Origin: an uncultured Flavobacteriales bacterium
GTDB taxonomy: Bacteria; Bacteroidota; Bacteroidia; Flavobacteriales_G; Salibacteraceae
DNA length: 64,000 nucleotides
Direction: 5' to 3'
Assembly: GCA_937121175.1 (NCBI GenBank)
Contig: CAKZKD010000002.1
Location: forward strand, 434,001 to 498,000
Both the position numbers and the translations under genes were made by a program. A model generated the notes under the pieces. The model ran no database searches and had not been told where the DNA came from. It worked only from the letters and a program-made list of their open reading frames with translations. Positions 1,486 through 62,340 of the stretch are shown here, one piece after another; positions within the stretch are counted from its first letter, which is position 1, and every line of letters begins with the position of its first letter.

Positions 1486-4112
1486 CGTTCCGAAAGTCGG
1501 TCAATGACCACTTGGTTGGTCTCCTTTTTCAGTACTTCCTCAATATTTGCGTTGATTGCATCTAAACGCATTTGGTACTCCTCTAGCATTGCAGTTTGCT
1601 CGGCAGTTGCTGTTTCGGTTTGTTGTATTTGTTTTTCTTTCAACTCAACGTCTTCTTTCGCTGATTTATAAAAATCTACAAGACTCTTTGAAGCTGAATA
1701 TTTTATCCAGTTTGAGCGAGAATTCAGTAATTCTGTTTTGAAGGTTGAATAGCTATCGATGAGCAATGAAGTGACATCATGTCTAATGACAAACTCGCTA
1801 TAGTTATAAAGGAAGTTTGCTTTTTTGTATGCGCCTATCTTGTTTAAATTCTTTTTAAAGAAGGCGATTTGGTCAATGGAACCGAAAGTTGAATACGCTT
1901 TAGAAATGGCTAAAATTAGCTCTTCATTTTGATCAGTTTCATGATCCGAGCAGAGCTTAAGAACTTCAGTCGTATCTTTTGCTTCTACACCCGTTTTTAT
2001 TGCCGTCTCAAGCACCTTGTATGATTCGTCTTTTCCAACTGCAGTATAGAAAGAAGCTTTGTCGTCAGGCAAATCATTTAGACGGTATATTTCAAAAGCA
2101 CGGGCTCGAACCGTTGAACTCAGGTCCGATTTAATCATCGGGATCAGCTGTTGCTTCAACCTTGGTTTATTCGTTGAATTATTGGCAACGAAACCATGGA
2201 TTGCTTGAACCCGAATCTGGTCAAACGGATGTTTCAAAGCAGAGTGTACAGCCTTTTTAGTTAATTCATGAGAGGAGTGTTTTTCGAGCAATTGAGTAAG
2301 TGCCTTGCTAACGTCTCGGTAATTCGTATTGGCTGAGTATTGATTATACCAGGCTTCAACAGTTTTATTGGGTTCTTCAACTTCTGCTAACAAGTAATTA
2401 TCTGTGTCAAAATCAACCCATAAATTGCTTGCGGAGCCTTTTAGGTAGAACGTGTCTATTTCATTTTGAATTCGAATGGTATCAGAAAATATAGCGTAAG
2501 GTTGGTAGCTTGTTATAACCAACGGAATTTGATACAAAGGAAATTCATCTAAATTTTGGTTTTGTTGAACAACTATATAATTCACTAATGTGGCTGAATC
2601 TTGATTATACGTGATGGTTAACTTTGGGTGTCCTTTATCAAACATCCATTGGTTAAAAAACCAATTCATATCACGACCAGTTACTTCCTCGACTATAAGT
2701 CTTAAATCGTGCATTTCTGCTGACTTATGTGCAAATCGACTAAGATATGTTTTTAAGCTCTCAAAAAAAGCGTCATCGCCAACAACAGTTCTAAGTTGAT
2801 GCAATATACATGCACCTTTAGAGTAGGAATGGCCATCAAACACTTCAATTTTGCTGTCGTACTGAAATCGCACAAAATCTACTTGTTTACGTTCAGATTC
2901 GCGTAAGTAACTCCGTAGTTTCTGTTCTAAATTGAATTGTGCCTCAAATGGTGTTTTGCTGTGTTCAACCCAAAGGTATTCTCCGTAGGTGGCAAAGGCT
3001 TCGTTTAACGTGATGTTTGACCAGCTCTCGCAACTCACCAAATTGCCAAACCATTGGTGAAAGAGCTCATGTGCAATAATTCCCTCTTGTGGATAATCGA
3101 TAAGCTCTCTTTTGTGCCGTTGTACAAACTCACCGTGAATAGTCGCAGATGTGTTTTCCATAGCTCCAGATACAAAGTCTCTTACTACTACTTGGGCGTA
3201 TTTATCCCAAGGATAATCAACGCCTAAAAGTTTAGAATAAAACTCCATCATTGCTGGTGTTTCGCCAAAAATATGTGGTGCATCGTCGTGGTAATCAGGC
3301 TCGGTGTAATAATCGACCGAGAGATTTCTCCAAGTATCTTCATAAACAGCAAAATCGCCAACAGCTAGCATAACGAGGTATGGGGAATGAGGCTTATTTT
3401 GCGCCCAAATATCGGTCCGTGTACCATTTCCATTTTCGGTAGAAAATTCCAAAGTACCATTGCTCAGCGTTTTGTAATTATCTGGAACAGTTACGGCAAT
3501 TTCTTGAGTCATTTTTTGGTTGGGTTCATCTAAGGTAGGAAACCAACACGATGAAAAATCTGTTTCGCCTTGTGTCCAAATTTGGGTTGGTTTTTCTGCT
3601 TGAGTTTTTTGCGCGTTTATAAAATACAATCCTTGGCCGCCTCTTATTGCTTTCCCACTGCGTTCCTCAACTTCGTTAGGGTTTGCAACGTATTTAATCA
3701 AGATGTTAACTGTATCTTTTTTGGTAAGTAGATTGGAGAATAGAATGGTTAATTTTTCTCCGTCGTATTCATAAGATGAAGTATTTAGTGAGTCATCAAG
3801 TAGCCTTACGCTTTCAATATTAAATGCTTTTGCGTGAAGTAATAAGGTAGATTGATTATAAAAGTGAGGCGAAAGGGTAAGAACAGCCTCTCCAATAACG
3901 GTTTCTTTTTCAAAATCGAACCCCAAATCAAGCCTAGTATGAATTAAGTTCCAAACCAGGGGTTTAGCAGCTTGGTATTGGGGTTGCTTTTTTCGATTTT
4001 CTTTTTTGGCCGGAATATTTGCTTCAGCTTTTTTTTCTTGAGGTAAGACCTGTTCAGAATTTTTGCAAGAGAAGATAGAAACTAGGAAAAGAAGAGCAAG
4101 GATTTTTCGCAT
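1482..4112 (-). CDS. M1 family metallopeptidase (aminopeptidase N-like), lipoprotein
   Basis: This 876-residue zinc aminopeptidase trims N-terminal residues from peptides in the envelope. The M1 signatures are present: the GAMEN exopeptidase motif at residues 316-320, HELFH at 348-352, and the third zinc ligand Glu371 in LNEAFA, 19 residues after the second His. The N-terminus MRKILALLFLVSIFSC ends in a lipobox with Cys16, so it is a lipoprotein. A longer frame reaches back to 4172, but a TAAATTTG promoter box at 4116-4123 lies between the two starts, and the lipoprotein signal begins at 4112. Its C-terminal half resembles the helical HEAT-like region of M1 enzymes. Its stop overlaps that of the convergent gene ending at 1485. 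Confidence 0.93.
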   Translation of the reverse strand: MRKILALLFLVSIFSCKNSEQVLPQEKKAEANIPAKKENRKKQPQYQAAKPLVWNLIHTRLDLGFDFEKETVIGEAVLTLSPHFYNQSTLLLHAKAFNIESVRLLDDSLNTSSYEYDGEKLTILFSNLLTKKDTVNILIKYVANPNEVEERSGKAIRGGQGLYFINAQKTQAEKPTQIWTQGETDFSSCWFPTLDEPNQKMTQEIAVTVPDNYKTLSNGTLEFSTENGNGTRTDIWAQNKPHSPYLVMLAVGDFAVYEDTWRNLSVDYYTEPDYHDDAPHIFGETPAMMEFYSKLLGVDYPWDKYAQVVVRDFVSGAMENTSATIHGEFVQRHKRELIDYPQEGIIAHELFHQWFGNLVSCESWSNITLNEAFATYGEYLWVEHSKTPFEAQFNLEQKLRSYLRESERKQVDFVRFQYDSKIEVFDGHSYSKGACILHQLRTVVGDDAFFESLKTYLSRFAHKSAEMHDLRLIVEEVTGRDMNWFFNQWMFDKGHPKLTITYNQDSATLVNYIVVQQNQNLDEFPLYQIPLVITSYQPYAIFSDTIRIQNEIDTFYLKGSASNLWVDFDTDNYLLAEVEEPNKTVEAWYNQYSANTNYRDVSKALTQLLEKHSSHELTKKAVHSALKHPFDQIRVQAIHGFVANNSTNKPRLKQQLIPMIKSDLSSTVRARAFEIYRLNDLPDDKASFYTAVGKDESYKVLETAIKTGVEAKDTTEVLKLCSDHETDQNEELILAISKAYSTFGSIDQIAFFKKNLNKIGAYKKANFLYNYSEFVIRHDVTSLLIDSYSTFKTELLNSRSNWIKYSASKSLVDFYKSAKEDVELKEKQIQQTETATAEQTAMLEEYQMRLDAINANIEEVLKKETNQVVIDRLSER

Positions 4113-4115
4113 AAA

Positions 4116-4123
4116 CAAATTTA
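4116..4123 (-). promoter_or_regulatory. -7 promoter box (TAAATTTG) 3 nt before the M1 peptidase ATG
   Basis: The minus strand reads TAAATTTG and then TTT directly before the ATG at 4112. With the usual distance from the -7 box to the transcription start, the mRNA would begin at or next to the start codon. No -33 box is obvious. Confidence 0.5.
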
Positions 4124-34594: not shown

Positions 34595-35326
34595 CTAAAC
34601 CTTCCGCTTCAACTCAAAATGTTGACCTAAATAAACACGCTTTACTTGTTCATCAGAAGCTAACTCCTCAGCAGTACCTGCTTTCAGAATGTTTCCTTCA
34701 AAAAGTAAGTAGGCGCGTTCTGTGATGGACAAGGTTTCTTGAACGTTGTGGTCGGTAATGAGAATTCCAATGTTCTTGTCGCGGAGTTTGTAGATAATAC
34801 TTTGAATATCCTCTACCGCAATAGGGTCAACCCCTGCAAATGGTTCATCCAACAAAATAAATTTTGGGTCAACGGCTAGCGCCCGAGCAATTTCGGTTCG
34901 ACGTCGTTCACCCCCAGATAGCAAGTCCCCGCGGTTTTTTCGAACATGATCTAAACTAAACTCGTCAATTAAAGCATCCAGTTTGGTTTGTTGGTCTTTT
35001 TTGGAGAGTTTGGTCATTTGTAGAACAGCGCGAATATTATCCTCAACGCTAAGTTTGCGGAACACGCTTGCTTCTTGCGGCAAGTAACCAATGCCTTTCT
35101 GAGCTCGTTTGAACATGGCCAGAGAAGTAATGTCTTCATTGTCTAAGAAAACATTACCACCATTCGGTTGAATTAGACCAACTACCATATAAAACGAAGT
35201 GGTTTTACCAGCCCCATTTGGCCCCAATAAACCAACAATTTCACCTTGCGAAACTTCAAGACTTACGCCTTTAACCACCGTACGACTTTTGTATTTCTTT
35301 ATCAGGTTTTCTGCTCTAAGCTTCAT
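34595..35326 (-). CDS. lptB: LPS export ABC transporter ATP-binding protein LptB
   Basis: LptB powers extraction of lipopolysaccharide from the inner membrane by LptFG. The 243-residue ATPase has Walker [10 protein letters not shown], signature [15 protein letters not shown], Walker [14 protein letters not shown] and switch His in TDHNVQETL. The sequence [19 protein letters not shown] is typical of LptB. The DUF5686 gene ends 9 nt upstream on the same strand, suggesting one operon with tatC and DUF5686. Confidence 0.94.
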
Positions 35327-35335
35327 TCCTCAAAT

Positions 35336-37813
35336 TTAAAAGGTAAATTGTAATGACAACGAAGCACCAAAGTTTCTGGCGGCACTTTGGCTCTTGTCTT
35401 TGTTTAAGTTCGTTAAACGGTACATAAAATCAACTCGCAACAATTTAAAGATGTTTTCTACTCCGATTCCCGACTCAAAATAAGGTTTAGGTAATCCTGT
35501 AAGGGTAGTTGGAAACTCTAAAATGGTCGTGTTTTCTGGTCGAAGGGTTCCAGCAACACCTTTCACCCAAATCAATTCTCGCCATTGAAGTTTGCGCATT
35601 AAGGGTATTTTATTGAGGAATAGCCCGTTAAAATGATGGGTAATCACCCCCTGAATCCACTCGTCGGAAGCGTATTCCAAAAAGTTCATCAAGTTAAAGG
35701 CTAGAGGGTCATAGAAGAAGGTTTCGTTGCCATTGTGAAGTTCCAGAACAGGAAAAGGAACAGTACCCCAAATTTTCCCATAGCCCGCATGGTAAACGCT
35801 GTAGCCCAAAGGGTTAATGAAAATTTTATCTTGAATCGATAAGTAGATTTTTTGGTATTCGTATTGGCTACCAAAAGCTCCTTTAATTCCAAAGCTGGTT
35901 CGCAAATTTATAATTGGAAACATTGAACTTAGGGAATAACGATCGAATGCACCAAGCACATATTTTTCTCTAAGTGCAAAATGTGTGTTAAATTTTAATT
36001 CGGTAATCTTTAATCGACCTAGAGGATCTGAAATTGAGGTGTCTGCGTTTTGGTCAAATACTAAATCTGGAGTTACAGAACGTAATTGTCTATGATTAAA
36101 AATTACTTCGTTTGATAGTGCCTCAGAGTACCAGTGTTCAATACCAACTTTGTATTCTTCAATTCCATTCAATTGATTAGCAGGACGTGCTCGAAAAAAC
36201 GAAGCGAGCAGATTATCTTGCTGGTCATTGTTTTCGCTGGTTCCCATTTGCATGATATCGTTACGATAATCCAAGTGCAACATGGTCCACGTTTTTCGAT
36301 TCAAAAAAATATCAGCTCCAGCTCCATACTTGAGTTTATTGTCTCGAATCCCATAGGCCAGGTAACCGCGCAATCTTATCTTTTCATTGAATGCTCCAAG
36401 TGTTCTTGCGCCCACTCTAAATCGGTGTCCTTCAACTGGGTTGTAACTATAAATATTGAAGTACGGGCCAATTTCAATCTTTTCAAACTCTTTATAGCCA
36501 GTGGTTATTATTTTAATTATATCGACATAGGTCTTAAAGGCTGGAACCTGCTTCAATGTATCCACCATGTGGTAAATAGCCTTTTCGTTTTCGGTTAGTT
36601 TTTCGTGACGGTTTTCCTCCCAGTAAGACAGTTCTTTTTTATTAGCATCATCAGCTACGGATATGTTTGTGCCGTCCGAATAAAATTCATTGTCTTTGGG
36701 TTTGTTTATAATGAAATCGCGGTAAGTACTTGTCTTTCTTCCATAAAACCCAATGGTTTTTTCAGCAAGGTTAATATCGACAACTAGTTGGTCTTTAGTT
36801 AGCATCCACACCTCTTTTTCAACCTGACTATACTCTTGTTCTAATGTAAGGTCGTTCACAAAGTTGATATTGGCATTTTTACTAATCGTAGCCTCTACCT
36901 TTTTCACCGCGTAGGTAGTGTCGGCAATCCACAAGTTTCCAGTAAAATTTAGTTCGTATTCTCGCCTTGGTACAAACTTGATTTTGTAGCATTTATGATT
37001 TTCAATATTCATGCTATCTAATAAATAATAGTGATACGAAACGTTGCCCACATTAGCTACTGGCGATACAAAGCTCTTATTGAATAGCTTTATATAGTTG
37101 TCGTAGATATTCACGTTTTGGTACATATCGCCCAAAAATTGCTGTAAACTCTCGTTTTCGAGGCCGGTTATTTTAGTGGCTTTAATAATTTCTTTTTTAC
37201 GTTTTGGAAGCCGAGTGTAATAGTAATCGGACATTGACTCCGTCATGAAAATGGGTAAATACGGGCTTTTATCCGTAGTGTCGATATAATCAAAAATGAA
37301 ATTGAATTTTTTCCAAGCCTTTCGGTTTTTGAATTTTTCATCGATGTTGTTTAAGTCAAATTCGATTTTGTTGTAAACTTCATATTCGTAAGCATCTAGT
37401 TTCTTTCGGTCGTTGATTTTTTTGTTTTCGACAACCCTTTCCATTATGGCTATTGCAGGGTCTTTGTACTTTTTGTCCGGTTTTATGATTATTTCCTGCA
37501 ATTGAACATTACCGGGGTCGAGTTCAAAATTCAAGGTTTGGCTGATGTCTTTTTTTACTTTTCTAGAAAGCGGTTTATAGCCAACAAAAGAGGCTGTTAG
37601 TGAGTCTGTTGCGTAATAGGTCTCTATGCTGAAATACCCTTCAAAATTAGATGTAGTTCCAATCTTTGAGTTTTTAAAGGCCACGTTTACAAAGGGCAAA
37701 GGTTCCTTGGTTTCCTTATCCGTTATTCGCCCTTTAATAATAGTTTTTTGTCCGAATAGAACAAAACTTGTACAAATAATGAAAGCAGTTATAAGAAATC
37801 TAATACAGTTCAA
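35336..37813 (-). CDS. DUF5686 outer-membrane protein with carboxypeptidase-regulatory-like domain
   Basis: This 825-residue protein has a signal peptide (cleavage near LFGQ), then a CarboxypepD_reg-like beta-sandwich (about 25-110; GRITDKETKEPLPFVNVAF) as in SusC-type proteins, and a long DUF5686 region of alternating strands that probably forms an outer-membrane barrel, ending FGASLSLQFTF with a terminal Phe. There is no TonB plug. The start is TTG at 37813. It lies 11 nt after tatC and 9 nt before lptB, so it may belong to an envelope-biogenesis operon. Function is unknown. Confidence 0.88.
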   Translation of the reverse strand: MNCIRFLITAFIICTSFVLFGQKTIIKGRITDKETKEPLPFVNVAFKNSKIGTTSNFEGYFSIETYYATDSLTASFVGYKPLSRKVKKDISQTLNFELDPGNVQLQEIIIKPDKKYKDPAIAIMERVVENKKINDRKKLDAYEYEVYNKIEFDLNNIDEKFKNRKAWKKFNFIFDYIDTTDKSPYLPIFMTESMSDYYYTRLPKRKKEIIKATKITGLENESLQQFLGDMYQNVNIYDNYIKLFNKSFVSPVANVGNVSYHYYLLDSMNIENHKCYKIKFVPRREYELNFTGNLWIADTTYAVKKVEATISKNANINFVNDLTLEQEYSQVEKEVWMLTKDQLVVDINLAEKTIGFYGRKTSTYRDFIINKPKDNEFYSDGTNISVADDANKKELSYWEENRHEKLTENEKAIYHMVDTLKQVPAFKTYVDIIKIITTGYKEFEKIEIGPYFNIYSYNPVEGHRFRVGARTLGAFNEKIRLRGYLAYGIRDNKLKYGAGADIFLNRKTWTMLHLDYRNDIMQMGTSENNDQQDNLLASFFRARPANQLNGIEEYKVGIEHWYSEALSNEVIFNHRQLRSVTPDLVFDQNADTSISDPLGRLKITELKFNTHFALREKYVLGAFDRYSLSSMFPIINLRTSFGIKGAFGSQYEYQKIYLSIQDKIFINPLGYSVYHAGYGKIWGTVPFPVLELHNGNETFFYDPLAFNLMNFLEYASDEWIQGVITHHFNGLFLNKIPLMRKLQWRELIWVKGVAGTLRPENTTILEFPTTLTGLPKPYFESGIGVENIFKLLRVDFMYRLTNLNKDKSQSAARNFGASLSLQFTF

Positions 37814-53988: not shown

Positions 53989-54011
53989 AGCTACCTTATG
54001 GTGGCTTTTTT
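53989..54011 (+). terminator. Rho-independent terminator after fumC
   Basis: AGCTACC pairs with GGTGGCT (one GU pair) around a 4-nt loop, followed by a T run that reaches into the end of the convergent manC gene. Confidence 0.75.
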
Positions 54012-55077
54012 ATTTTTTGGAATTGAGTTCAGCTACGTATTGTTTTATTTTTTGCTCATCCTTGATTGGGCAAATTAGCAATGCTTCCTCAGTATCCACA
54101 ATTATGTAACCTTCTAGTGCTTTAATAATTGCTTTTTTATTTTTAGGGATAACCACAATGTTGTGCGCACTCTCCTTTAATAACGCAGTATTGTTGTTAA
54201 CCAAAATATTTTCGGATTCATCTTTTGCAACATGCTCACGCAACGAGCTCCAACTCCCTAAATCACTCCAGCCAAAATCTCCCGGAATTACTGTCACGTT
54301 TTTAGCATTTTCAAGAATGGCATAGTCAACAGAAATATCATTGCACAATGGATAAAACTCCTGGACGGAATTTGCTTCCTCAGTAGTGTTCAACTTAGAC
54401 TTATGGCTTTCGAATAATTGATGCATTTCTGGTTGATAATTCTCAAAAAGGTTAATTATGTTCTTGGCGTTCCAAATAAACAACCCACTATTCCAGTAGT
54501 AATTGCCGGAAGAGCACATCGTTTGGGCTTTTTCTAATTCAGGTTTTTCCGTAAAAGCCTTCACTTTAAATACACCAGATTCAAGCTCACTTCCTGAGTG
54601 AATGTACCCAAAACCTGTTGAGGGGTATGTAGGTTTTATTCCCAAAGTAACTATTTGTTCAGTATCATTATTACACTGTTCTAGCCCTAGTTTAATTGCC
54701 TCTGCAAACGCGCTTTCCTTGGAAATTAAATGGTCAGACGGTGCTACAATAAATGACGCATCAGGGGTTTTTTTCCAGATTTTAAACGCCGCATACAAAA
54801 TACATGGAGCGGTATTTCTTCGTGCTGGCTCGCAAATTACCTGAGCCTCATTAATATTGGGTAACTGAGTACATACTAATTCTTTGTATTGAGAATTGGT
54901 AAGAATAAGAATGTTTTCTTGTCCAACTATAGGTACAAAGCGATCGACAGTTTGTTGAAGTAAACTTTTTCCAGTTCCTAGAATGTCTAGGAATTGTTTT
55001 GGATTTTCCTCTGTGCTGGAAGGCCAGAACCTAGAGCCTACACCACCAGCCATGATTACGCAATAATTATTACTCAT
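54010..55077 (-). CDS. Mannose-1-phosphate guanylyltransferase
   Basis: The 355-residue enzyme makes GDP-mannose from mannose-1-P and GTP for surface polysaccharides. It has the nucleotidyltransferase loop MAGGVGSRFWPSSTEENPKQF, APSDHLI and GFGYI near 150, and FTEKPELEKA. It lacks the C-terminal mannose isomerase domain of bifunctional enzymes, so isomerisation must come from elsewhere, possibly from the PGI/PMI gene at 9.7 kb. It overlaps the sprT gene by 4 nt (ATGA). Confidence 0.92.
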   Translation of the reverse strand: MSNNYCVIMAGGVGSRFWPSSTEENPKQFLDILGTGKSLLQQTVDRFVPIVGQENILILTNSQYKELVCTQLPNINEAQVICEPARRNTAPCILYAAFKIWKKTPDASFIVAPSDHLISKESAFAEAIKLGLEQCNNDTEQIVTLGIKPTYPSTGFGYIHSGSELESGVFKVKAFTEKPELEKAQTMCSSGNYYWNSGLFIWNAKNIINLFENYQPEMHQLFESHKSKLNTTEEANSVQEFYPLCNDISVDYAILENAKNVTVIPGDFGWSDLGSWSSLREHVAKDESENILVNNNTALLKESAHNIVVIPKNKKAIIKALEGYIIVDTEEALLICPIKDEQKIKQYVAELNSKK

Positions 55078-55688
55078 AGTTTATTTATTTCAGACACTTC
55101 TGCTAGTCCACTTACTAAATACAATCGGCTTGAATTCAGTTCCTTACAAAGGAAGCGCGTTCTTTTTTTAGTTCCTTTTTCAAATATCCGTTTTCCAATC
55201 TGAAAAATAGCTTTGTCCGAAAGATCATTAAGAATAATTGTGCGATTAACATCGTAATTTCTCAATCCAATCATTAGTTGTGGGTCAGAAACGCTACTTG
55301 CCTTTGGGTTTATTGAATATTTAGCTAGGGGTTTAGAGATGTCCTCCGGAAAGATATTTCTAGAAATGAGTTCCTTTAGCCACTTCCCGAAAATCATTTT
55401 CCACTCTTTACCATGTGGTAAAATTCTCTTCCCAAATTGTTCAAAAGCTTCTAGGTGAGAAAATTCATGAATCAGCGTAATTAGAAAAGCGTACTGGTTT
55501 AGAGTTCCGTTCACAGAAACTCTGTGGTACGGCGTTTTTGAATTGGGCAATCGATAATCTCCCAATTTTGTTTTTCTCTTGTTGCTTATGGTAAGTAAGA
55601 CCTGTTTGTCCTGTAAGTATTTAGTTAGTTCCACAGATAAATTCGGCGGTAAATACTGTTCTAGTTGTAACTGATCTACAAGGTTCAT
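55074..55688 (-). CDS. SprT-like zinc metallopeptidase
   Basis: The 204-residue protein has the zinc motif HEFSHLEAF and the SprT-like context (RVSVNGTLNQYAFLITLIHE; FGKRILPHGKEWKMIF). The family is related to DNA-protein-crosslink proteases (SPRTN), but the bacterial role is unknown. Both overlaps with neighbours are 4 nt (ATGA), so lipoprotein, sprT and manC form one operon. Confidence 0.85.
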   Translation of the reverse strand: MNLVDQLQLEQYLPPNLSVELTKYLQDKQVLLTISNKRKTKLGDYRLPNSKTPYHRVSVNGTLNQYAFLITLIHEFSHLEAFEQFGKRILPHGKEWKMIFGKWLKELISRNIFPEDISKPLAKYSINPKASSVSDPQLMIGLRNYDVNRTIILNDLSDKAIFQIGKRIFEKGTKKRTRFLCKELNSSRLYLVSGLAEVSEINKL

Positions 55689-55846
55689 TTCGGCTTCTTA
55701 TATCTAGTTTTTTTCGGCTTCTTATTTTTTTCTCCAAAGGTTGGGCAATCGCAGTCCTTTTTCGTGCTTTTACAGGAGCTAAAAACCACGGATGATGAAA
55801 AGATGATTGCAATAATAATTGCTGTATTTCTAATTTTAGAAGCCAC
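55685..55846 (-). CDS. Small Lys-rich lipoprotein (53 residues)
   Basis: From a GTG at 55846 the frame gives MASKIRNTAIIIAIIF, then SSSVVFSSC, a lipobox with Cys at about 25, followed by a Cys/Lys-rich tail (KKDCDCPTFGEKN and KKPKKTRYKKPK). A TACATTTG box ends 4 nt before the GTG, which excludes the longer frame beginning at 55921. It overlaps sprT by 4 nt. Function is unknown. Confidence 0.6.
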   Translation of the reverse strand: MASKIRNTAIIIAIIFSSSVVFSSCKSTKKDCDCPTFGEKNKKPKKTRYKKPK

Positions 55847-55850
55847 AAAG

Positions 55851-55858
55851 CAAATGTA
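55851..55858 (-). promoter_or_regulatory. -7 promoter box (TACATTTG) 4 nt before the small lipoprotein GTG
   Basis: Exact TAnnTTTG on the minus strand. Its partner on the plus strand is only 15 nt away (55874), so the two promoters are back to back in a 40-nt gap. Confidence 0.5.
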
Positions 55859-55873
55859 AAACTCCGCAAGTAT

Positions 55874-55881
55874 TAAATTTG
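55874..55881 (+). promoter_or_regulatory. -7 promoter box (TAAATTTG) 5 nt before the mlaE ATG
   Basis: Exact TAnnTTTG match ending 5 nt before the ATG at 55887; the mRNA should start at or within 2 nt of the start codon. Confidence 0.5.
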
Positions 55882-55886
55882 CGTAC

Positions 55887-56630
55887 ATGCTAAAGATTCT
55901 CCAGCAAATAGGCGAATACACTATATTTATTTCTAAAGTTTTTCGCCGGCCTGAAAAATGGAGGATTTATTTCCAAATGTTCATACAAGAATTATGGACG
56001 CTTGGTATTGGCTCTATCGGAATTATTCTAATAATTTCTGGTTTTATGGGAATGGTAATAACCATTCAAACCGCTTCACAAATTGATAGCGGTTGGATTC
56101 CTGCATATTTGGTTGGATATACTACTCGACAAAGTATGATACTTGAGTTTTCACCAACTATGTTAGCGCTGATATTATCCGGTAAAATTGGCTCCAACAT
56201 AGCTTCCGAATTAGGTTCTATGCGTATCTCTGAACAGATAGATGCATTGGAAATAATGGGAATAAATTCAGCCAATTACTTGGTTTTACCTAAAATTACC
56301 GCTTTAATGGTTATTATGCCATTTTTGGTGGTGCTTAGTATGTTCATTGGAATATTTTTCGGTTATGTTATTTGTGAGACAGTAGGAGTGATTACACCCT
56401 CAGATTACATCTACGGTATCCAGTATGATTTTCGCCCATTTGATATTGTTTATGCCTTGATTAAGGCGGTTTTGTTTGCATACATAATTACTTCGGTATC
56501 GTCTTTCTACGGGTATTTTGCAAGTGGATCTGCATTGGAAGTTGGAAAATCTAGTACCCAAGCAGTGGTTTACAGCAGTATTGTCGTCTTGATTTTCAAT
56601 TATATTTTAACCCAAATGTTACTTATATGA
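55887..56630 (+). CDS. mlaE: MlaE-type phospholipid transport permease
   Basis: The 247-residue inner-membrane permease belongs to the MCE/Mla system that moves phospholipids between inner and outer membranes. It has five to six helices and the family motifs TIQTASQI, SPTMLALILSGKIGSNIASE, LGSMRISEQIDALEIMGI and the C-terminal GKSSTQAVVYSSI. The ATPase gene overlaps its end by 4 nt. No MCE (MlaD) gene follows within the window. Confidence 0.92.
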   Translation: MLKILQQIGEYTIFISKVFRRPEKWRIYFQMFIQELWTLGIGSIGIILIISGFMGMVITIQTASQIDSGWIPAYLVGYTTRQSMILEFSPTMLALILSGKIGSNIASELGSMRISEQIDALEIMGINSANYLVLPKITALMVIMPFLVVLSMFIGIFFGYVICETVGVITPSDYIYGIQYDFRPFDIVYALIKAVLFAYIITSVSSFYGYFASGSALEVGKSSTQAVVYSSIVVLIFNYILTQMLLI

Positions 56631-57382
56631 TTGAGATTATAGGTTTGAATAAATCATTCGGAGAGAATCAAGTGCTGCGAAATATAGATGTGGTATTCGA
56701 AGAAGGGAAGTCTAATCTTTTGATAGGTGCATCGGGTAGTGGTAAAACAACGCTGTGTAAATGTACGGTGGGTTTGCATCAACCCGATACAGGAACTATA
56801 TCATATAATGGTAGAATTTTCAATCAGATGTCTCATAATGAGAAAAAGGAAATTCGAAGAGAAATTGGATTTTTGTTTCAAGGGAGTGCATTGTTCGATT
56901 ACATGACCGTTGAAGAAAACGTGATGTTTCCAATAAAGATGTTCTCAAACTTAACAACTAAAGAAGCTAAAAAGCGAGTTGATTTTTGCTTAGAACGTGT
57001 TGACTTAAAAGGTGTAAATAAATTAATGCCAAGCGAATTAAGCGGTGGAATGAAAAAGCGTGTAGGTATTGCTCGCGCCATTTCAGCTAAACCCAAGTAT
57101 TTGTTTTGTGATGAACCTAATTCAGGCCTTGACCCTCAAACATCTATTCTAATTGACAACCTTATAAAGGAAATCACGCATGAATATAAGATGACGACCG
57201 TTGTAATTACGCACGACATGAATTCTGTTCTTGAAATTGGTGAGCACATTTCATTTATATACAAAGGGGATATGCTTTGGGATGGAACTAATAAAGAGGT
57301 ACTGGATACCACGTCAACAGAACTTACTGATTTTGTGTATGCTTCTTCCTTCATGAAGGAATTGAAACGAATGAACGGGTAA
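56627..57382 (+). CDS. mlaF: MlaF-type ABC transporter ATP-binding protein
   Basis: The 251-residue ATPase has Walker A GASGSGKTTL, signature LSGGMKKRVGIARAI, Walker B FCDEPNSGLDP and the switch His in VITHDMNSV. It pairs with MlaE, whose stop it overlaps. A bidirectional terminator follows. Confidence 0.93.
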   Translation: MIEIIGLNKSFGENQVLRNIDVVFEEGKSNLLIGASGSGKTTLCKCTVGLHQPDTGTISYNGRIFNQMSHNEKKEIRREIGFLFQGSALFDYMTVEENVMFPIKMFSNLTTKEAKKRVDFCLERVDLKGVNKLMPSELSGGMKKRVGIARAISAKPKYLFCDEPNSGLDPQTSILIDNLIKEITHEYKMTTVVITHDMNSVLEIGEHISFIYKGDMLWDGTNKEVLDTTSTELTDFVYASSFMKELKRMNG

Positions 57383-57487: not shown

Positions 57488-60400
57488 TTACTTGACAATA
57501 ACCCTCTTAGAAACCTCAGTTGTACCGTTGCTAATGTTCAAGAAGTAAACTCCTTTATCAAAGTTAGAAACGTTGATAGAGTTTGTAATATTTCCATCTG
57601 ATTCAACAGTGTTAGAATAAACAACTTGCCCTACTGCATTATTTAGAGAAATCGTATAAGTTCCGTTGTCAATTCCATCTATTTTAACATTTACCTTATC
57701 CGTTGATGGATTAGGATATATAGCTAATGTAGATGCGTTTCCAAATTCATTGATGCTTGTAAAGTTAATTCCGTTACCGCTTTCAACACTGAAAACTTTT
57801 TCTTCGGAAGTACAGCCATCAAAGCTAGTTGCAACGGCAATGTAATCACCAGCAACATCTCTATCTTTTTTATCAGGATCGATAATTAACTCAGTACCAG
57901 TCTGTCCTGAAATTACTTTACCACTTGGGTTTGTCCACTTAATAACATCAATTGTACCCCCACTAGCGTTTGCTGTGAGTTTAACTTCACCTGCTTTTGA
58001 ATCATCAATAATACTAGCACCAGGAGTATTTCCGCCTCCAATCAACTCTACATCAGTAATTTCAAAAAAGTTATTAGGCTCTGTAACCAACTGATTTCCT
58101 GTAAATGTACACCCGTTATCATCCGTAACAGTATATAAATAGTTTCCTCCGGTAAGTCCAGTTCTATTAAAATCAGTATTTGTACCACCAGCCCATTGAA
58201 TGGAGTAAGGCGCTCCTGTAGTAGCAGGTGTTCCACCAGCACCAATAACAGTTATTGTTCCAACAGCTTCACCCTTACAATCGATATTATCTACTGAAGA
58301 ACGTGCAAACACTAAAGTATCTGGACCAGTAATATTAACTTTAATGGACTGAAGGCAAGGTGGATTGGATCCGTCATTTACTTCAACTTGGTAACTTCCT
58401 GCTTCAAGATTAGATAATACAGTTGTTCCTGTAAGTGGGAAACCAGGGTTGTTTGCATCAGTCCACTTGTAAGTATAATTCGGATTTGGGTTAGAACCAG
58501 CTACAACATTAATTTGGATTTTCCCTTGTCTTTGACCATAGCAAGTAGTAGTGGTTACACTATTCGCGGCATCTAAAGTCACTGTAGGTGCACCAAAATC
58601 ACTAACACCAGCAATTGCTGTTGTAGAACAGCCATTTGCGTCTGTAATTGTAACTGTGTACGAACCAGATGATAATTGATTAATGGTACGACCCGTTACG
58701 ATGCTTCCTTTTACGTCCCACTTAAAATTAAACGGAGCAGCCCCGTTAATTGGCAAAGTGTCAACCTCAGCTCGTCCATCTGTATTACCACATGCTGTGG
58801 TAGCAAAACCTTTTGCTGAAGCACCAACTAAAGAAGGGCAAATTGAAGGTTTAGTATTTAGTCTAACCATGAATTTTCTTGAAGTTAAGCCCCAGTTTCC
58901 TTGAGTACCATTTGCATTAGTACGAATAACGTATTGAAACAATTGAGCGTCGCCTGGCTCAACTGGCCATAGTACTGTGTCTGTATTAAATACTTGATTG
59001 CCATGAAAAACAACGAAATAATTTCCAGGAGCAATAGTATCCATAGTAGAACCTGTTCTTGAAACTGGTAAACTAACCCATTGGTCAGGACTATTGTTGA
59101 AATTAGATAACATCATATCACCAGAAGTGAAAATAGGTTGAGCGCCAATACCTACAATTCCGTTTGCTGTATAATTTGAAAATTGATAAATATCAGCGCG
59201 GATTGTTGCAGAAGCGTTTACATTAGTTGTGTTTGTGGCAGGGTTTACAAAACTAATACTGGATACGGTATCCATTGTTTTAATTTCGTACACTACAGCT
59301 AAATCGAACTCATATACGTTTGCAGATTTGTTGAACAAGAAGGCTTGTGAACTAGCAATATCTCCTTCATCACGTGCATAAACCGTATCGGTAACAGCAA
59401 TGTTGACCGTTGCTGTGTCATCACCAGTATTCTTTAATAACGAATCTGCTTTAGTGATTACGTCAATTCTGTAATCTCCTTCTCCTGAGTTAAGTACAAA
59501 TGAAGAAACTGAAGTGGAATCTGAATCCTTAGACCGGACAATTGAGCTACCGTTTGTAATTGTTTGAGAAAAACTTGAAGGACCAGAAGCAATAGCTGTT
59601 ACACCTGCGTTTCTTTGTATATTGGCTCCTACATTACAAAATTTAGCACCAACTGTAATTGGGTATTGAAGCGCTTGAACGCTAGGTATTCTTGTGTAAA
59701 ATTCACCATAGTGAACCCTTAAAGAATCAGTTAATGGAACGAATGCAATTTCTTCCATTCTTAAATCATTTGTTTCGCCTTCAATTAATTTGATATCATC
59801 AATTTGCCAGAAATAGTGTGATCCACCTCTCCAGTGAAATCGTACTTTAGGAGCAGAGCCTCCCGCGATTTCCTTAGTCAAATTAATTCTTTCAGTTTTT
59901 GCACTTGTTCCCGTGATTCCGAAAGTCGTAAAAGAAGACTCATTAGACGGTACTCCTTGGCGCATGTCAAGCGTGTCCCAAGTCACACCATCAGGAGATA
60001 CTTCAAGCAATAGTTCAGCATCAGCAAACGGTCTCCAATAATGCTCAAATTCTAAAATTACAGTTCTCACTGCTGATAAATTAGGTAGAGGAATTTCAAT
60101 GTATGCATCAATATCCACAAAACCAGTTGAAGGACCAGGATTCATACTGTCACAGTCGATAATCATGGTTCCGTTAGCAGCAGTGGTAGATGTAATTCTA
60201 TTGTTTCCATTACCATATTGACCAACGGTTCCGTTTGGATTGTTTGACCAAGACCATGTCCCAGGGCCTGAGATGACTCTATTTGTCCATCCAGCTGGTA
60301 ATGCGCCACCTGCAAAATCTTCACTAAAGAGTATGGCTCCTGGTGCAGCCAGTTTTCCCTTAGCATTATTAGACGAGGATAATTGAGCATTTGCAGCATC

Positions 60401-60547
60401 GACATCCACGGATAGCTCGCGACTGCCTTCCATAGAGAACATAGATTCGTCTGATAGTATTGTTGCATCAGATTGTTGGGCGATACCTGCGATTGAGAAT
60501 AACAGGGTTCCGAACAATGAGGCAATGAAGTTGTAATTTTTTCTCAT
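57488..60547 (-). CDS. T9SS surface protein with jelly-roll-like N-domain and SprB repeats
   Basis: The 1019-residue protein has a signal peptide (about 1-23, cleavage near GIAQ). A jelly-roll-like domain follows (about 70-260; EDFAGGALPAGWTNRV, LEFEHYWRPFADAELLLEVS, SPDGVTWDTL). Next come an Ig-like middle part and three SprB-type repeats (about 570-825; SSGSYTVTITDANGC, LEAGSYQVEVND, GGNYLYTVTDDNGC). The last 77 residues are a type A T9SS sorting domain (LAIYPNPSTDKVNVKI, FDKGVYFLNI, KRVIVK). SprB repeats occur in the mobile gliding adhesin. The ligand and any link to motility are unknown. Confidence 0.88.
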   Translation of the reverse strand: MRKNYNFIASLFGTLLFSIAGIAQQSDATILSDESMFSMEGSRELSVDVDAANAQLSSSNNAKGKLAAPGAILFSEDFAGGALPAGWTNRVISGPGTWSWSNNPNGTVGQYGNGNNRITSTTAANGTMIIDCDSMNPGPSTGFVDIDAYIEIPLPNLSAVRTVILEFEHYWRPFADAELLLEVSPDGVTWDTLDMRQGVPSNESSFTTFGITGTSAKTERINLTKEIAGGSAPKVRFHWRGGSHYFWQIDDIKLIEGETNDLRMEEIAFVPLTDSLRVHYGEFYTRIPSVQALQYPITVGAKFCNVGANIQRNAGVTAIASGPSSFSQTITNGSSIVRSKDSDSTSVSSFVLNSGEGDYRIDVITKADSLLKNTGDDTATVNIAVTDTVYARDEGDIASSQAFLFNKSANVYEFDLAVVYEIKTMDTVSSISFVNPATNTTNVNASATIRADIYQFSNYTANGIVGIGAQPIFTSGDMMLSNFNNSPDQWVSLPVSRTGSTMDTIAPGNYFVVFHGNQVFNTDTVLWPVEPGDAQLFQYVIRTNANGTQGNWGLTSRKFMVRLNTKPSICPSLVGASAKGFATTACGNTDGRAEVDTLPINGAAPFNFKWDVKGSIVTGRTINQLSSGSYTVTITDANGCSTTAIAGVSDFGAPTVTLDAANSVTTTTCYGQRQGKIQINVVAGSNPNPNYTYKWTDANNPGFPLTGTTVLSNLEAGSYQVEVNDGSNPPCLQSIKVNITGPDTLVFARSSVDNIDCKGEAVGTITVIGAGGTPATTGAPYSIQWAGGTNTDFNRTGLTGGNYLYTVTDDNGCTFTGNQLVTEPNNFFEITDVELIGGGNTPGASIIDDSKAGEVKLTANASGGTIDVIKWTNPSGKVISGQTGTELIIDPDKKDRDVAGDYIAVATSFDGCTSEEKVFSVESGNGINFTSINEFGNASTLAIYPNPSTDKVNVKIDGIDNGTYTISLNNAVGQVVYSNTVESDGNITNSINVSNFDKGVYFLNISNGTTEVSKRVIVK

Positions 60548-60696: not shown

Positions 60697-61365
60697 TTAT
60701 GAAACAGTTAAGCCGTCTTTCATGCGAATAGTGCGTTGCGCACGTTGCGCAATATCTTCCTCATGCGTGACCATTACGATGGTATTACCCTGTTCATGAA
60801 TGTCGGTGAGTAAATCCATTATTTCATGAGAAGTTACAGAGTCTAGATTTCCTGTAGGTTCGTCGGCAAGTATAATAGACGGAGTATTTACTAAGGCCCT
60901 AGCAATAGCAACTCGTTGTCTCTGTCCACCACTCAATTCATTAGGTTGGTGAGCTATGCGATCCTTCAACCCCACCAATTCCAAAACTGATGCTGCCTTT
61001 TCGTTCCGAATTTTTTTTGAAGTGCCATTATAAATCATCGGAAGCGCTACGTTGTCAATGGCGCTATAGCGAGGTAAAAGATTGAATGATTGAAAAACAA
61101 AACCAATTTCTTTATTTCGAACCTCCGCCAATTGATTCTCAAGCATTTTGGATACGTCTTGACTATTTAAATAGTATTTGCCAGCAGTTGGGGTGTCTAA
61201 GCAACCTAATATATTCATTAAAGTAGATTTACCCGAACCAGAAGTGCCCATGAGAGCAACATATTCGCCTTTGTCAATGGAAATGTCCACACCTTTTAGT
61301 GCCTCAACGGTTTCTTTACCAACCTTAAAGTGTCTCTTCAGTTTTTCTGTCCGTATTATTTCCAC
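60697..61365 (-). CDS. LolD/MacB-type ABC transporter ATP-binding protein
   Basis: The 222-residue ATPase has Walker [11 protein letters not shown], the subgroup motif [12 protein letters not shown], signature [15 protein letters not shown], Walker [13 protein letters not shown] and switch His in VTHEEDIA. This subgroup serves lipoprotein release (Lol), MacB-type export or FtsX-like permeases. No permease gene is adjacent, so the partner is unknown. A GTG at 61365 is the start: a TACATTTG box ends 6 nt before it and lies between it and the next upstream TTG. Confidence 0.9.
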
Positions 61366-61371
61366 AGGAAT

Positions 61372-61379
61372 CAAATGTA
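61372..61379 (-). promoter_or_regulatory. -7 promoter box (TACATTTG) 6 nt before the LolD-like GTG
   Basis: Exact TAnnTTTG on the minus strand, divergent from the EamA promoter (61432-61439). Confidence 0.5.
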
Positions 61380-61431
61380 CGGTCAAAACTTACTTTTTTA
61401 AACCATAAAAAATGATGGTCGGTAAATCAAA

Positions 61432-61439
61432 TACTTTTG
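61432..61439 (+). promoter_or_regulatory. -7 promoter box (TACTTTTG) 4 nt before the EamA GTG
   Basis: Exact TAnnTTTG match. The frame of the EamA gene has a stop at 61423, so its start must be the GTG at 61444, only 4 nt after the box. Confidence 0.55.
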
Positions 61440-61443
61440 CAGC

Positions 61444-62340
61444 GTGAAAATTGATACCCCATCGAGGCAATATATCGCCCTAATTCTGTTGGCGCTTATT
61501 TGGGGAAGCTCATTTATATTAATGAAGCGTGGATTAGAATCCTTTTCGGCAATTCAAGTGGCTGAATATAGGTTGTTTATTTCTGCGATTGCTCTGTTTC
61601 CATTTGCGTTTAAGCAAATCAACAAATTCCCTTTTTGGAATAAGAAAATGCTAGCCATTTCTTTTGTTGCGTTTTTTGGAAATTTGTTGCCGGCCATTTT
61701 GTTCGCTACGGCTCAGACAAAATTACAAAGTGGAATAGTTGGGATGCTTAATAGCTTAGTACCTGTTTTTACAATTGTTATTGGGGCAGTTTTCTTTTCT
61801 ATTCTTCCAAAACAAAAACAAGTAGTTGGAGTTTTTATAGGATTGATAGGGGCGGTAGTTTTAATCTTTGGCTCGACTCAAATCGGATTAATTGGAGTAC
61901 CAATCTCTTATTCTTTAATGGTTGTTGCTGCTACCATTGGTTATGGAATCAGCGTTAACACTATAAAGTCTTGGCTACAAAATATGCCCGCTATTCAGAT
62001 TACCTCCTTTGCCTTTTTTATGCTTTTGCCGTTTATGACAATAGGACTAATTGCAAATGGATTTTTTCAAACCGCTTCAATTCCTGAAAATCACTTGAAC
62101 TTGGTGTACTTAACTATTCTGGGTGTTCTAGGTACAGCTGGTGCACTGCTGCTGTTCAATCAGCTTATTAAATATACTTCTGCGGTGTTTGCTTCTTCTG
62201 TTACTTATATGATTCCCGTGGTGGCAACTTTATGGGGGTTGTTTGATGGTGAAGAACTGAATTTGTTTCATGGAATTGGGTTCGGTTTAATTCTATTTGG
62301 TGTGTATATTATTAACGCCGTGAGAAAACGAAAGAATTAA
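61444..62340 (+). CDS. EamA/DMT-family transporter
   Basis: The 298-residue membrane protein has ten predicted helices in two EamA repeats (IALILLALIWGSSFILMKRG at the start of the first; AATIGYGISVNTIK and VTYMIPVVATLWGLFDGEE in the second). The family exports amino acids, nucleotide sugars or other metabolites, and the substrate is unknown. The GTG start is forced, because the only upstream sequence in frame carries the promoter box. Confidence 0.9.
   Translation: MKIDTPSRQYIALILLALIWGSSFILMKRGLESFSAIQVAEYRLFISAIALFPFAFKQINKFPFWNKKMLAISFVAFFGNLLPAILFATAQTKLQSGIVGMLNSLVPVFTIVIGAVFFSILPKQKQVVGVFIGLIGAVVLIFGSTQIGLIGVPISYSLMVVAATIGYGISVNTIKSWLQNMPAIQITSFAFFMLLPFMTIGLIANGFFQTASIPENHLNLVYLTILGVLGTAGALLLFNQLIKYTSAVFASSVTYMIPVVATLWGLFDGEELNLFHGIGFGLILFGVYIINAVRKRKN

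What the first reader, a model, noticed from the sequence alone, without database searches (positions are those of the whole stretch)
55846..55889. Back-to-back near-leaderless promoters between a small lipoprotein gene and mlaE
The start codons at 55846 (GTG, minus) and 55887 (ATG, plus) are only 40 nt apart. Each has an exact TAnnTTTG box just before it: TACATTTG with a 4-nt gap and TAAATTTG with a 5-nt gap. In Bacteroidota this box is centred at -7, so both mRNAs should begin at or beside the start codon. With the anti-Shine-Dalgarno sequence hidden in this phylum, leaderless initiation may be a regular choice for some envelope genes.
Basis: partly seen in the sequence, partly recalled or inferred. 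Interest (0 to 1): 0.65.

Follow-up and report, generated by a model that had tools for sequence, protein, structure and literature searches.

The report
Conserved back-to-back leaderless promoter pair
Two neighbouring envelope genes that point away from each other appear to start their messenger RNAs exactly at the start codon, an arrangement kept by relatives and part of a larger, little-noticed class of leaderless genes in this group of bacteria.

Summary
TAAATTTG (55874-55881, +) lies 5 nt before the mlaE ATG, and TACATTTG (55858-55851, -) lies 4 nt before a lipoprotein GTG, with 40 nt between the two starts. Published Flavobacterium data put the TSS 4-5 nt after this box, so both mRNAs should begin at, or 1 nt before, the start codon. 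Relatives support this. In three congeneric species both boxes are 16/16 identical and both gaps unchanged, although 4-fold sites have fallen to 33-40% identity. In those relatives an in-frame TAG leaves GTG as the only standard start. The lipoprotein is an unnamed family next to mlaE, and it has a box 4-7 nt before its start in 28 of 34 boxed loci. Genome-wide, box-to-start gaps are bimodal: a sharp peak at 4-7 nt, a trough, then a leadered peak at 16-27 nt. Leaderless status is conserved between orthologues. Unambiguous GTG starts are mostly leaderless (15 versus 5 leadered), nearly all at exactly 4 nt. Leaderless genes are already known in Bacteroidota at 4-13%; the conserved pair, the bimodality and the GTG link look new. 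No RNA data were available.

The parts
55887..56630 (+). mlaE, permease of an MlaE-family lipid ABC transporter (247 aa), ATG start
   Evidence: Pfam PF02405 E=2.8e-67; N-terminus aligns with homologues from residue 1 or 2
55874..55881 (+). -7 box TAAATTTG of the mlaE promoter, 5 nt before ATG
   Evidence: identical in L030-L032; TAAATTTG 6 nt before a TTG start in L034; TACATTTG 5 nt before ATG in the g10 loci
55886..55887 (+). predicted mlaE transcription start (4-5 nt after the box): leaderless or 1-nt leader
   Evidence: inference from the box-to-TSS spacing measured in F. johnsoniae (PMC6847099) and F. psychrophilum (PMC9723704)
55859..55873 (.). 15-bp spacer between the two -7 boxes; would be covered by RNA polymerase at either promoter
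   Evidence: 12-15 of 15 identical within the genus; CAAGTATTAAATTTG is unique in the genome, so there is no sign of a regulon
55851..55858 (-). -7 box TACATTTG of the lipoprotein promoter, 4 nt before GTG
   Evidence: identical in L030-L032
55846..55846 (-). predicted lipoprotein transcription start (5th base after the box) = G of the GTG start codon
   Evidence: inference; 13 of 15 unambiguous leaderless GTG starts in the sample lie at exactly this gap
55685..55846 (-). small lipoprotein gene (53 aa, GTG start): signal peptide, lipobox SSC, KK-D-CDCP-TF motif
   Evidence: family alignment A1 with invariant C25, C32, C34, P35; no Pfam or NCBIfam match; GTG conserved 4/4 in the genus, with an in-frame TAG upstream in L030-L032
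55074..55688 (-). SprT-like metalloprotease gene; its ATG overlaps the lipoprotein stop (ATGA)
   Evidence: PF10263 E=7e-7; the same ATGA overlap in 15 of 30 loci where an HExxH gene follows
54010..55077 (-). nucleotidyltransferase, mannose-1-phosphate guanylyltransferase-like, last gene of the minus unit
   Evidence: PF00483 E=2.6e-39
56627..57382 (+). mlaF-like ABC ATPase, overlaps the end of mlaE
   Evidence: PF00005 E=1.5e-32

Best explanation
The 40-nt gap holds two divergent primary-sigma (TAnnTTTG-type) promoters, with their -7 boxes 15 bp apart. Each starts transcription at the start codon, or one base before it, of its own gene. The minus mRNA begins with a 5'-terminal GUG and encodes a small conserved lipoprotein whose end is joined (ATGA) to a SprT-like protease gene. 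The plus mRNA begins at or 1 nt before AUG and encodes mlaE-mlaF. Ribosomes would start on the 5'-terminal AUG or GUG (leaderless initiation). The lineage has a distinct leaderless class of genes in which this status is conserved gene by gene; the locus is a compact, double example. Shown: the boxes, gaps, conservation, gene structure and genome-wide distribution. Inferred: the actual TSS, leaderless translation, and that RNA polymerase can occupy only one of the two promoters at a time.
For: Exact boxes and gaps. In three congeners the boxes are 16/16 identical and the gaps unchanged, while 4-fold sites are 33-40% identical in five of six species pairs. In-frame TAG upstream of the box in L030-L032 leaves GTG as the only standard start, which is also kept 4/4. 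Lipoprotein family: 28 of 34 boxed loci have the box 4-7 nt before the start, 19 at exactly 4; after clustering at 85% MlaE identity, 15 of 19 boxed clusters. mlaE has a gap of 4-7 in 27 of 101 loci, including 16 at exactly 5. Genome-wide bimodal gaps with a cliff below 4. Status conserved between orthologues: leaderless to leaderless 8, to leadered 3; leadered to leaderless 0, to leadered 42. The Kozak-like A at -3 is missing from the leaderless class, 24/96 against 116/272, p=0.002. GTG spike at gap 4, none for TTG. No other exact box within 650 nt upstream of either gene.
Against: No RNA or ribosome data for this organism. The flanks of the lipoprotein box score low against the genome's other boxed promoters (2nd percentile; mlaE 22nd). 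In sister genera the box of one or both genes is 9-14 nt from the start (L033, L034, L035), so short leaders are tolerated. If the TSS lay 5 nt after the minus box, the transcript would start inside the GTG codon.
Confidence: 0.82

Rival explanations
1. Ordinary leadered transcription: the real promoters lie further upstream, inside the opposite gene, and the near-start boxes are fortuitous AT-rich matches or weak secondary starts.
For: The 8-base box occurs by chance about 84 times per 64 kb. The lipoprotein promoter flanks are atypical.
Against: Boxes are perfectly conserved where 4-fold sites have decayed, the same gap recurs in other genera and families, and no alternative exact box lies within 650 nt.
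Confidence: 0.1
2. Only mlaE is truly leaderless; the minus-strand box serves short or antisense RNA, and the lipoprotein ORF starts elsewhere or is not translated.
For: GTG start, small ORF, low flank score. GUG at a 5' end is inefficient in E. coli, as reviewed in PMC9031893.
Against: Lipobox and CxCP motif conserved across many families. An in-frame stop in three congeners leaves only GTG. ATG-start orthologues have the box at the same 4-nt gap. Other forced GTG genes show the same gap.
Confidence: 0.05
3. The inverted boxes are half-sites of a regulator operator (near-palindrome GCAAATGTA-15-TAAATTTGC) rather than two promoters.
For: The 15-bp spacer is conserved within the genus.
Against: The arms differ in other genera and their spacing changes (start-to-start distances of 40 to about 110 nt in most loci), whereas the gap from each box to its own start stays nearly fixed. 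CAAGTATTAAATTTG is unique in the genome. A regulator site overlapping the promoters remains possible in addition.
Confidence: 0.03

Closest known systems
Leaderless or near-leaderless mRNAs of Bacteroidota: F. johnsoniae 13% of boxed promoters with leaders of at most 10 nt (PMC6847099), F. psychrophilum 5.5% (PMC9723704), B. thetaiotaomicron 3.7% under 10 nt (PMC7366714)
   Same: TAnnTTTG box 4-5 nt before the TSS, start codon at or near the 5' end
   Different: Here the class forms a separate peak of roughly 24% of ATG genes with an exact box (computed from sequence, not RNA), conserved gene by gene, and it includes GTG starts; the pair is back to back
Leaderless ATG/GTG (RTG) genes of mycobacteria (PMC4633059)
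   Same: ATG or GTG at the 5' end is used; TTG is not
   Different: Demonstrated there by profiling and reporters; here inferred from box positions. Different sigma factor and box. Boxed GTG starts are mostly leaderless here
Bidirectional promoters from -10 element symmetry (Warman et al. 2021; Middlemiss et al. 2023, PMC10268837)
   Same: Two divergent starts from one short stretch
   Different: Those have TSSs 7-25 bp apart, usually 18, with overlapping -10 elements and often non-coding products; here predicted TSSs are about 41 bp apart, boxes do not overlap, and both products are genes
MlaE/MlaF lipid ABC transporter genes
   Same: MlaE permease and ABC ATPase
   Different: Divergent from an unnamed CxCP lipoprotein plus SprT-like unit instead of an mlaFEDCB order

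Membership tests
Leaderless mRNA genes | TSS at or within a few nt of the start codon | not testable with these tools
   no RNA data; predicted from box position only
Leaderless mRNA genes | promoter -10/-7 element immediately upstream of the start codon, conserved in orthologues | tested here: met
Leaderless mRNA genes | start codon cannot be placed further downstream | tested here: met
   lipoprotein signal peptide needs the GTG start; MlaE N-terminus conserved across loci
Bacteroidota primary-sigma promoter (TAHHTTTG) | TAHHTTTG -7 box | tested here: met
   TAAATTTG and TACATTTG, no G at the two variable positions
Bacteroidota primary-sigma promoter (TAHHTTTG) | -33 TTTG element | tested here: inconclusive
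   no -33 signal is visible in the genome's own 246 boxed promoters; F. johnsoniae work also found it weak
Bidirectional promoter (divergent TSSs 7-25 bp apart) | TSS spacing of 7-25 bp with overlapping -10 elements | tested here: not met
   predicted spacing about 41 bp, boxes 15 bp apart (definition from PMC10268837)
MlaE permease family PF02405 | profile match above the gathering score | tested here: met
   226.8 bits against a cut-off of 22.5
Any named lipoprotein family, for the minus gene | match to a Pfam or NCBIfam model | tested here: not met
   0 families for three members

The most novel reading that the evidence does not exclude
This Bacteroidota lineage has a dedicated leaderless initiation class, about a quarter of genes with an exact TAnnTTTG promoter. 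It accepts AUG or GUG but not UUG at the 5' end, uses GUG mostly there, and is inherited gene by gene over long times. A widespread small CxCP lipoprotein divergent from mlaE is one of its most conserved members.
Probability: 0.6. Interest if true: 0.74.

Novelty: new variant of a known kind. Interest (0 to 1): 0.6.

Why it matters
Bacteroidota do not use Shine-Dalgarno pairing, and how they choose start codons is an open question. RNA studies called leaderless mRNAs a minor remainder in this phylum. A sharp, conserved leaderless class with its own start-codon preference would mean a second initiation route used by a defined set of genes, and it gives a list of genes, start codons and predicted 5' ends that a single TSS or ribosome-profiling data set could confirm or reject. 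The pair also shows how two genes can share 40 nt with no room for leaders, so their promoters should exclude each other.

Tried and rejected
A first pattern search TANNTTTGN{3,7}ATG over the whole genome showed no excess over the reversed pattern (355 against 364), because most matches are not at gene starts; only gene-start-centred counting shows the signal. The envelope-specific leaderless idea was tested and rejected (p=0.15). A special regulon motif CAAGTATTAAATTTG: unique, rejected. A -33 element: no signal. More back-to-back leaderless pairs than chance: 7 against 3.7 expected, p=0.08, not significant. Anti-SD check: the 16S 3' end is absent from the assembly. Many mlaE loci of other orders without the adjacent lipoprotein have leadered mlaE (gap 15-23), so the mlaE half is not phylum-wide.

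Full report
Observation. Reading the window gives TAAATTTG at 55874-55881 (+), then CGTAC, then ATG at 55887; on the minus strand TACATTTG at 55858-55851, then CTTT, then GTG at 55846. The two start codons have 40 nt between them and the boxes 15 bp. The plus gene is mlaE (PF02405, 226.8 bits), followed by an overlapping ABC ATPase gene. The minus unit is a 53-aa lipoprotein, a SprT-like metalloprotease (PF10263) and a mannose-1-phosphate guanylyltransferase-like gene. The nearest named relatives are Flavobacteriales MAGs (Crocinitomicaceae bacterium SAT3021, 90% MlaE identity).

Is the box more than chance? The 8-mer itself is not: 70 in the window, 84 expected. The position is. I predicted genes with a codon model that ignores upstream sequence in 1.65 Mb of this genome (1235 ATG starts) and measured the gap from box end to start codon. 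Gaps 0-3: 4 cases; 4-7: 48 (19, 13, 10 and 6); 8-15: 34; 16-27: 127. The reversed box gives 4 at gaps 4-7. The same two-peaked curve is seen in two other genera, G012 (15 at 4-7) and G014 (13). The cliff below 4 is what leaderless transcripts predict, since published TSSs lie 4-5 nt after the box (F. johnsoniae PMC6847099; F. psychrophilum box at -12 to -5, PMC9723704). Pooled over four genomes, about 24% of boxed ATG promoters are leaderless after background correction. Published RNA-based figures are 13% with leaders of at most 10 nt, 5.5%, and 3.7% below 10 nt. A 2011 survey found almost none in Bacteroidetes but looked only for Pribnow-like boxes and said so (PMC3160421).

Conservation of this pair. 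In three congeners (L030-L032; MlaE 86-90% identical) both boxes are 16/16 identical and both gaps keep 5 and 4 nt, while 4-fold degenerate sites of mlaE are 33-40% identical in five of six pairs and 82% in the closest pair. In those relatives the codons upstream of the GTG run into an in-frame TAG, so GTG is the only standard start of the lipoprotein, and it is GTG in all four. In the g10 loci mlaE has TACATTTG 5 nt before ATG and, in those with an exact divergent box, the lipoprotein has TAGCTTTG 4 nt before ATG. Sister genera show small shifts (gaps of 6-14), so very short leaders are tolerated.

The lipoprotein. It belongs to an unnamed family of 37-74 aa with signal peptide, lipobox and a C-(x)-x-C-P-x-W/F motif; C25, C32, C34 and P35 are invariant in 33 sequences. 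No Pfam or NCBIfam model hits it. A profile finds matches in 226 of 295 genomes of the class at E<=0.01, a loose cut-off, and in 40 of 42 of the order. It lies divergently upstream of mlaE in 44 of 101 examined loci. Of 34 with an exact or TTCG/TTAG-type box within 45 nt, 28 have it 4-7 nt before the start, 19 at exactly 4; after clustering at 85% MlaE identity, 15 of 19 boxed clusters. With a background of 20-33%, the chance of 15 of 19 is 5e-8 to 5e-5, although clusters share ancestry. Its stop overlaps the start of an HExxH (SprT-like) gene as ATGA in 15 of 30 loci, suggesting coupled translation.

The leaderless class. Orthologue pairs in which both members have a box: own leaderless to leaderless 8, to leadered 3; own leadered to leaderless 0, to leadered 42 (Fisher p=2e-7). 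mlaE in G001 was mis-started by my predictor and is a further leaderless match. A at -3, the Kozak-like element of this phylum, is 24/96 in the leaderless and 116/272 in the leadered class (p=0.002), as expected if those bases are not transcribed, although promoter composition could contribute. Start codons: for genes whose first possible start is GTG, with no ATG in the next 20 codons, 13 boxes lie at gap 4, 2 at gap 5 and 5 in the leadered range; for ATG the figures are 58 at gaps 4-7 and 191 leadered; raw Fisher p=5e-6. TTG shows no spike. Mycobacteria likewise accept ATG and GTG, not TTG, at a 5' end (PMC4633059). The lipoprotein GTG of this finding was not in that sample and fits it exactly.

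Envelope genes? No. TM-or-signal-peptide proteins are 51/96 leaderless against 121/272 leadered, p=0.15.

Back-to-back pairs. Four in this genome sample (this one; 61365/61444 in the same window; C2:62037/62130; C3:19614/19725); two of them recur in another genus (G014) with the same or nearly the same spacing (78 and 78 nt; 92 and 93 nt) but ATG in place of GTG. Overall the predictor's count is 7 pairs over four genomes against 3.7 expected, p=0.08, so pairing itself is not shown to be favoured.

Mechanism. Shown: boxes, gaps, conservation, gene-start distribution. Inferred: TSS at 55846 and 55886/55887, ribosome start on the 5'-terminal codon, and mutual exclusion of RNA polymerase, since each promoter's upstream half covers the other's -7 box. 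Weak points: no RNA data, a low flank score for the minus promoter, my own gene starts, and only exact boxes counted.

Noticed in passing
61365-61444 (boxes 61372-61379 minus, 61432-61439 plus): A second back-to-back near-leaderless pair in the same window: an ABC ATPase gene (GTG 61365, gap 6) and an EamA-like transporter gene (GTG 61444, gap 4), 78 nt apart; in genus g12 (G014) the same pair has ATG starts with the same 78-nt spacing.
   Followed up: partly
55685-55846: Unnamed small lipoprotein family (SC..KKxC(x)xCPxW/F), widespread in the class and usually divergent from mlaE in the order; function unknown, possibly metal- or thiol-related.
   Followed up: partly
55685-55688: Lipoprotein stop and SprT-like start overlap as ATGA, conserved in at least 15 loci: likely translational coupling of a leaderless small gene to a protease gene.
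   Followed up: partly
4110-4123, minus: TAAATTTG only 3 nt before ATG of a large lipoprotein-like gene; the orthologue in G001 keeps the 3-nt gap, which would put the TSS inside the start codon if spacing were 4-5 nt.
   Followed up: no
35324-35338, minus: LptB-like ATPase gene with TAAATTTG 4 nt before ATG, leaderless also in G001 (gap 4) but without an exact box in G012 and G014.
   Followed up: partly
57488-60547, minus: 1019-aa secreted protein with SprB repeat and T9SS C-terminal sorting domain (PF13573, PF18962).
   Followed up: no
L063-L138 mlaE loci of other orders: Where the lipoprotein is not found next to it, mlaE is mostly leadered or without an exact box; several loci use box variants TAnnTTAG or TAnnTTCG just before the start.
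   Followed up: partly
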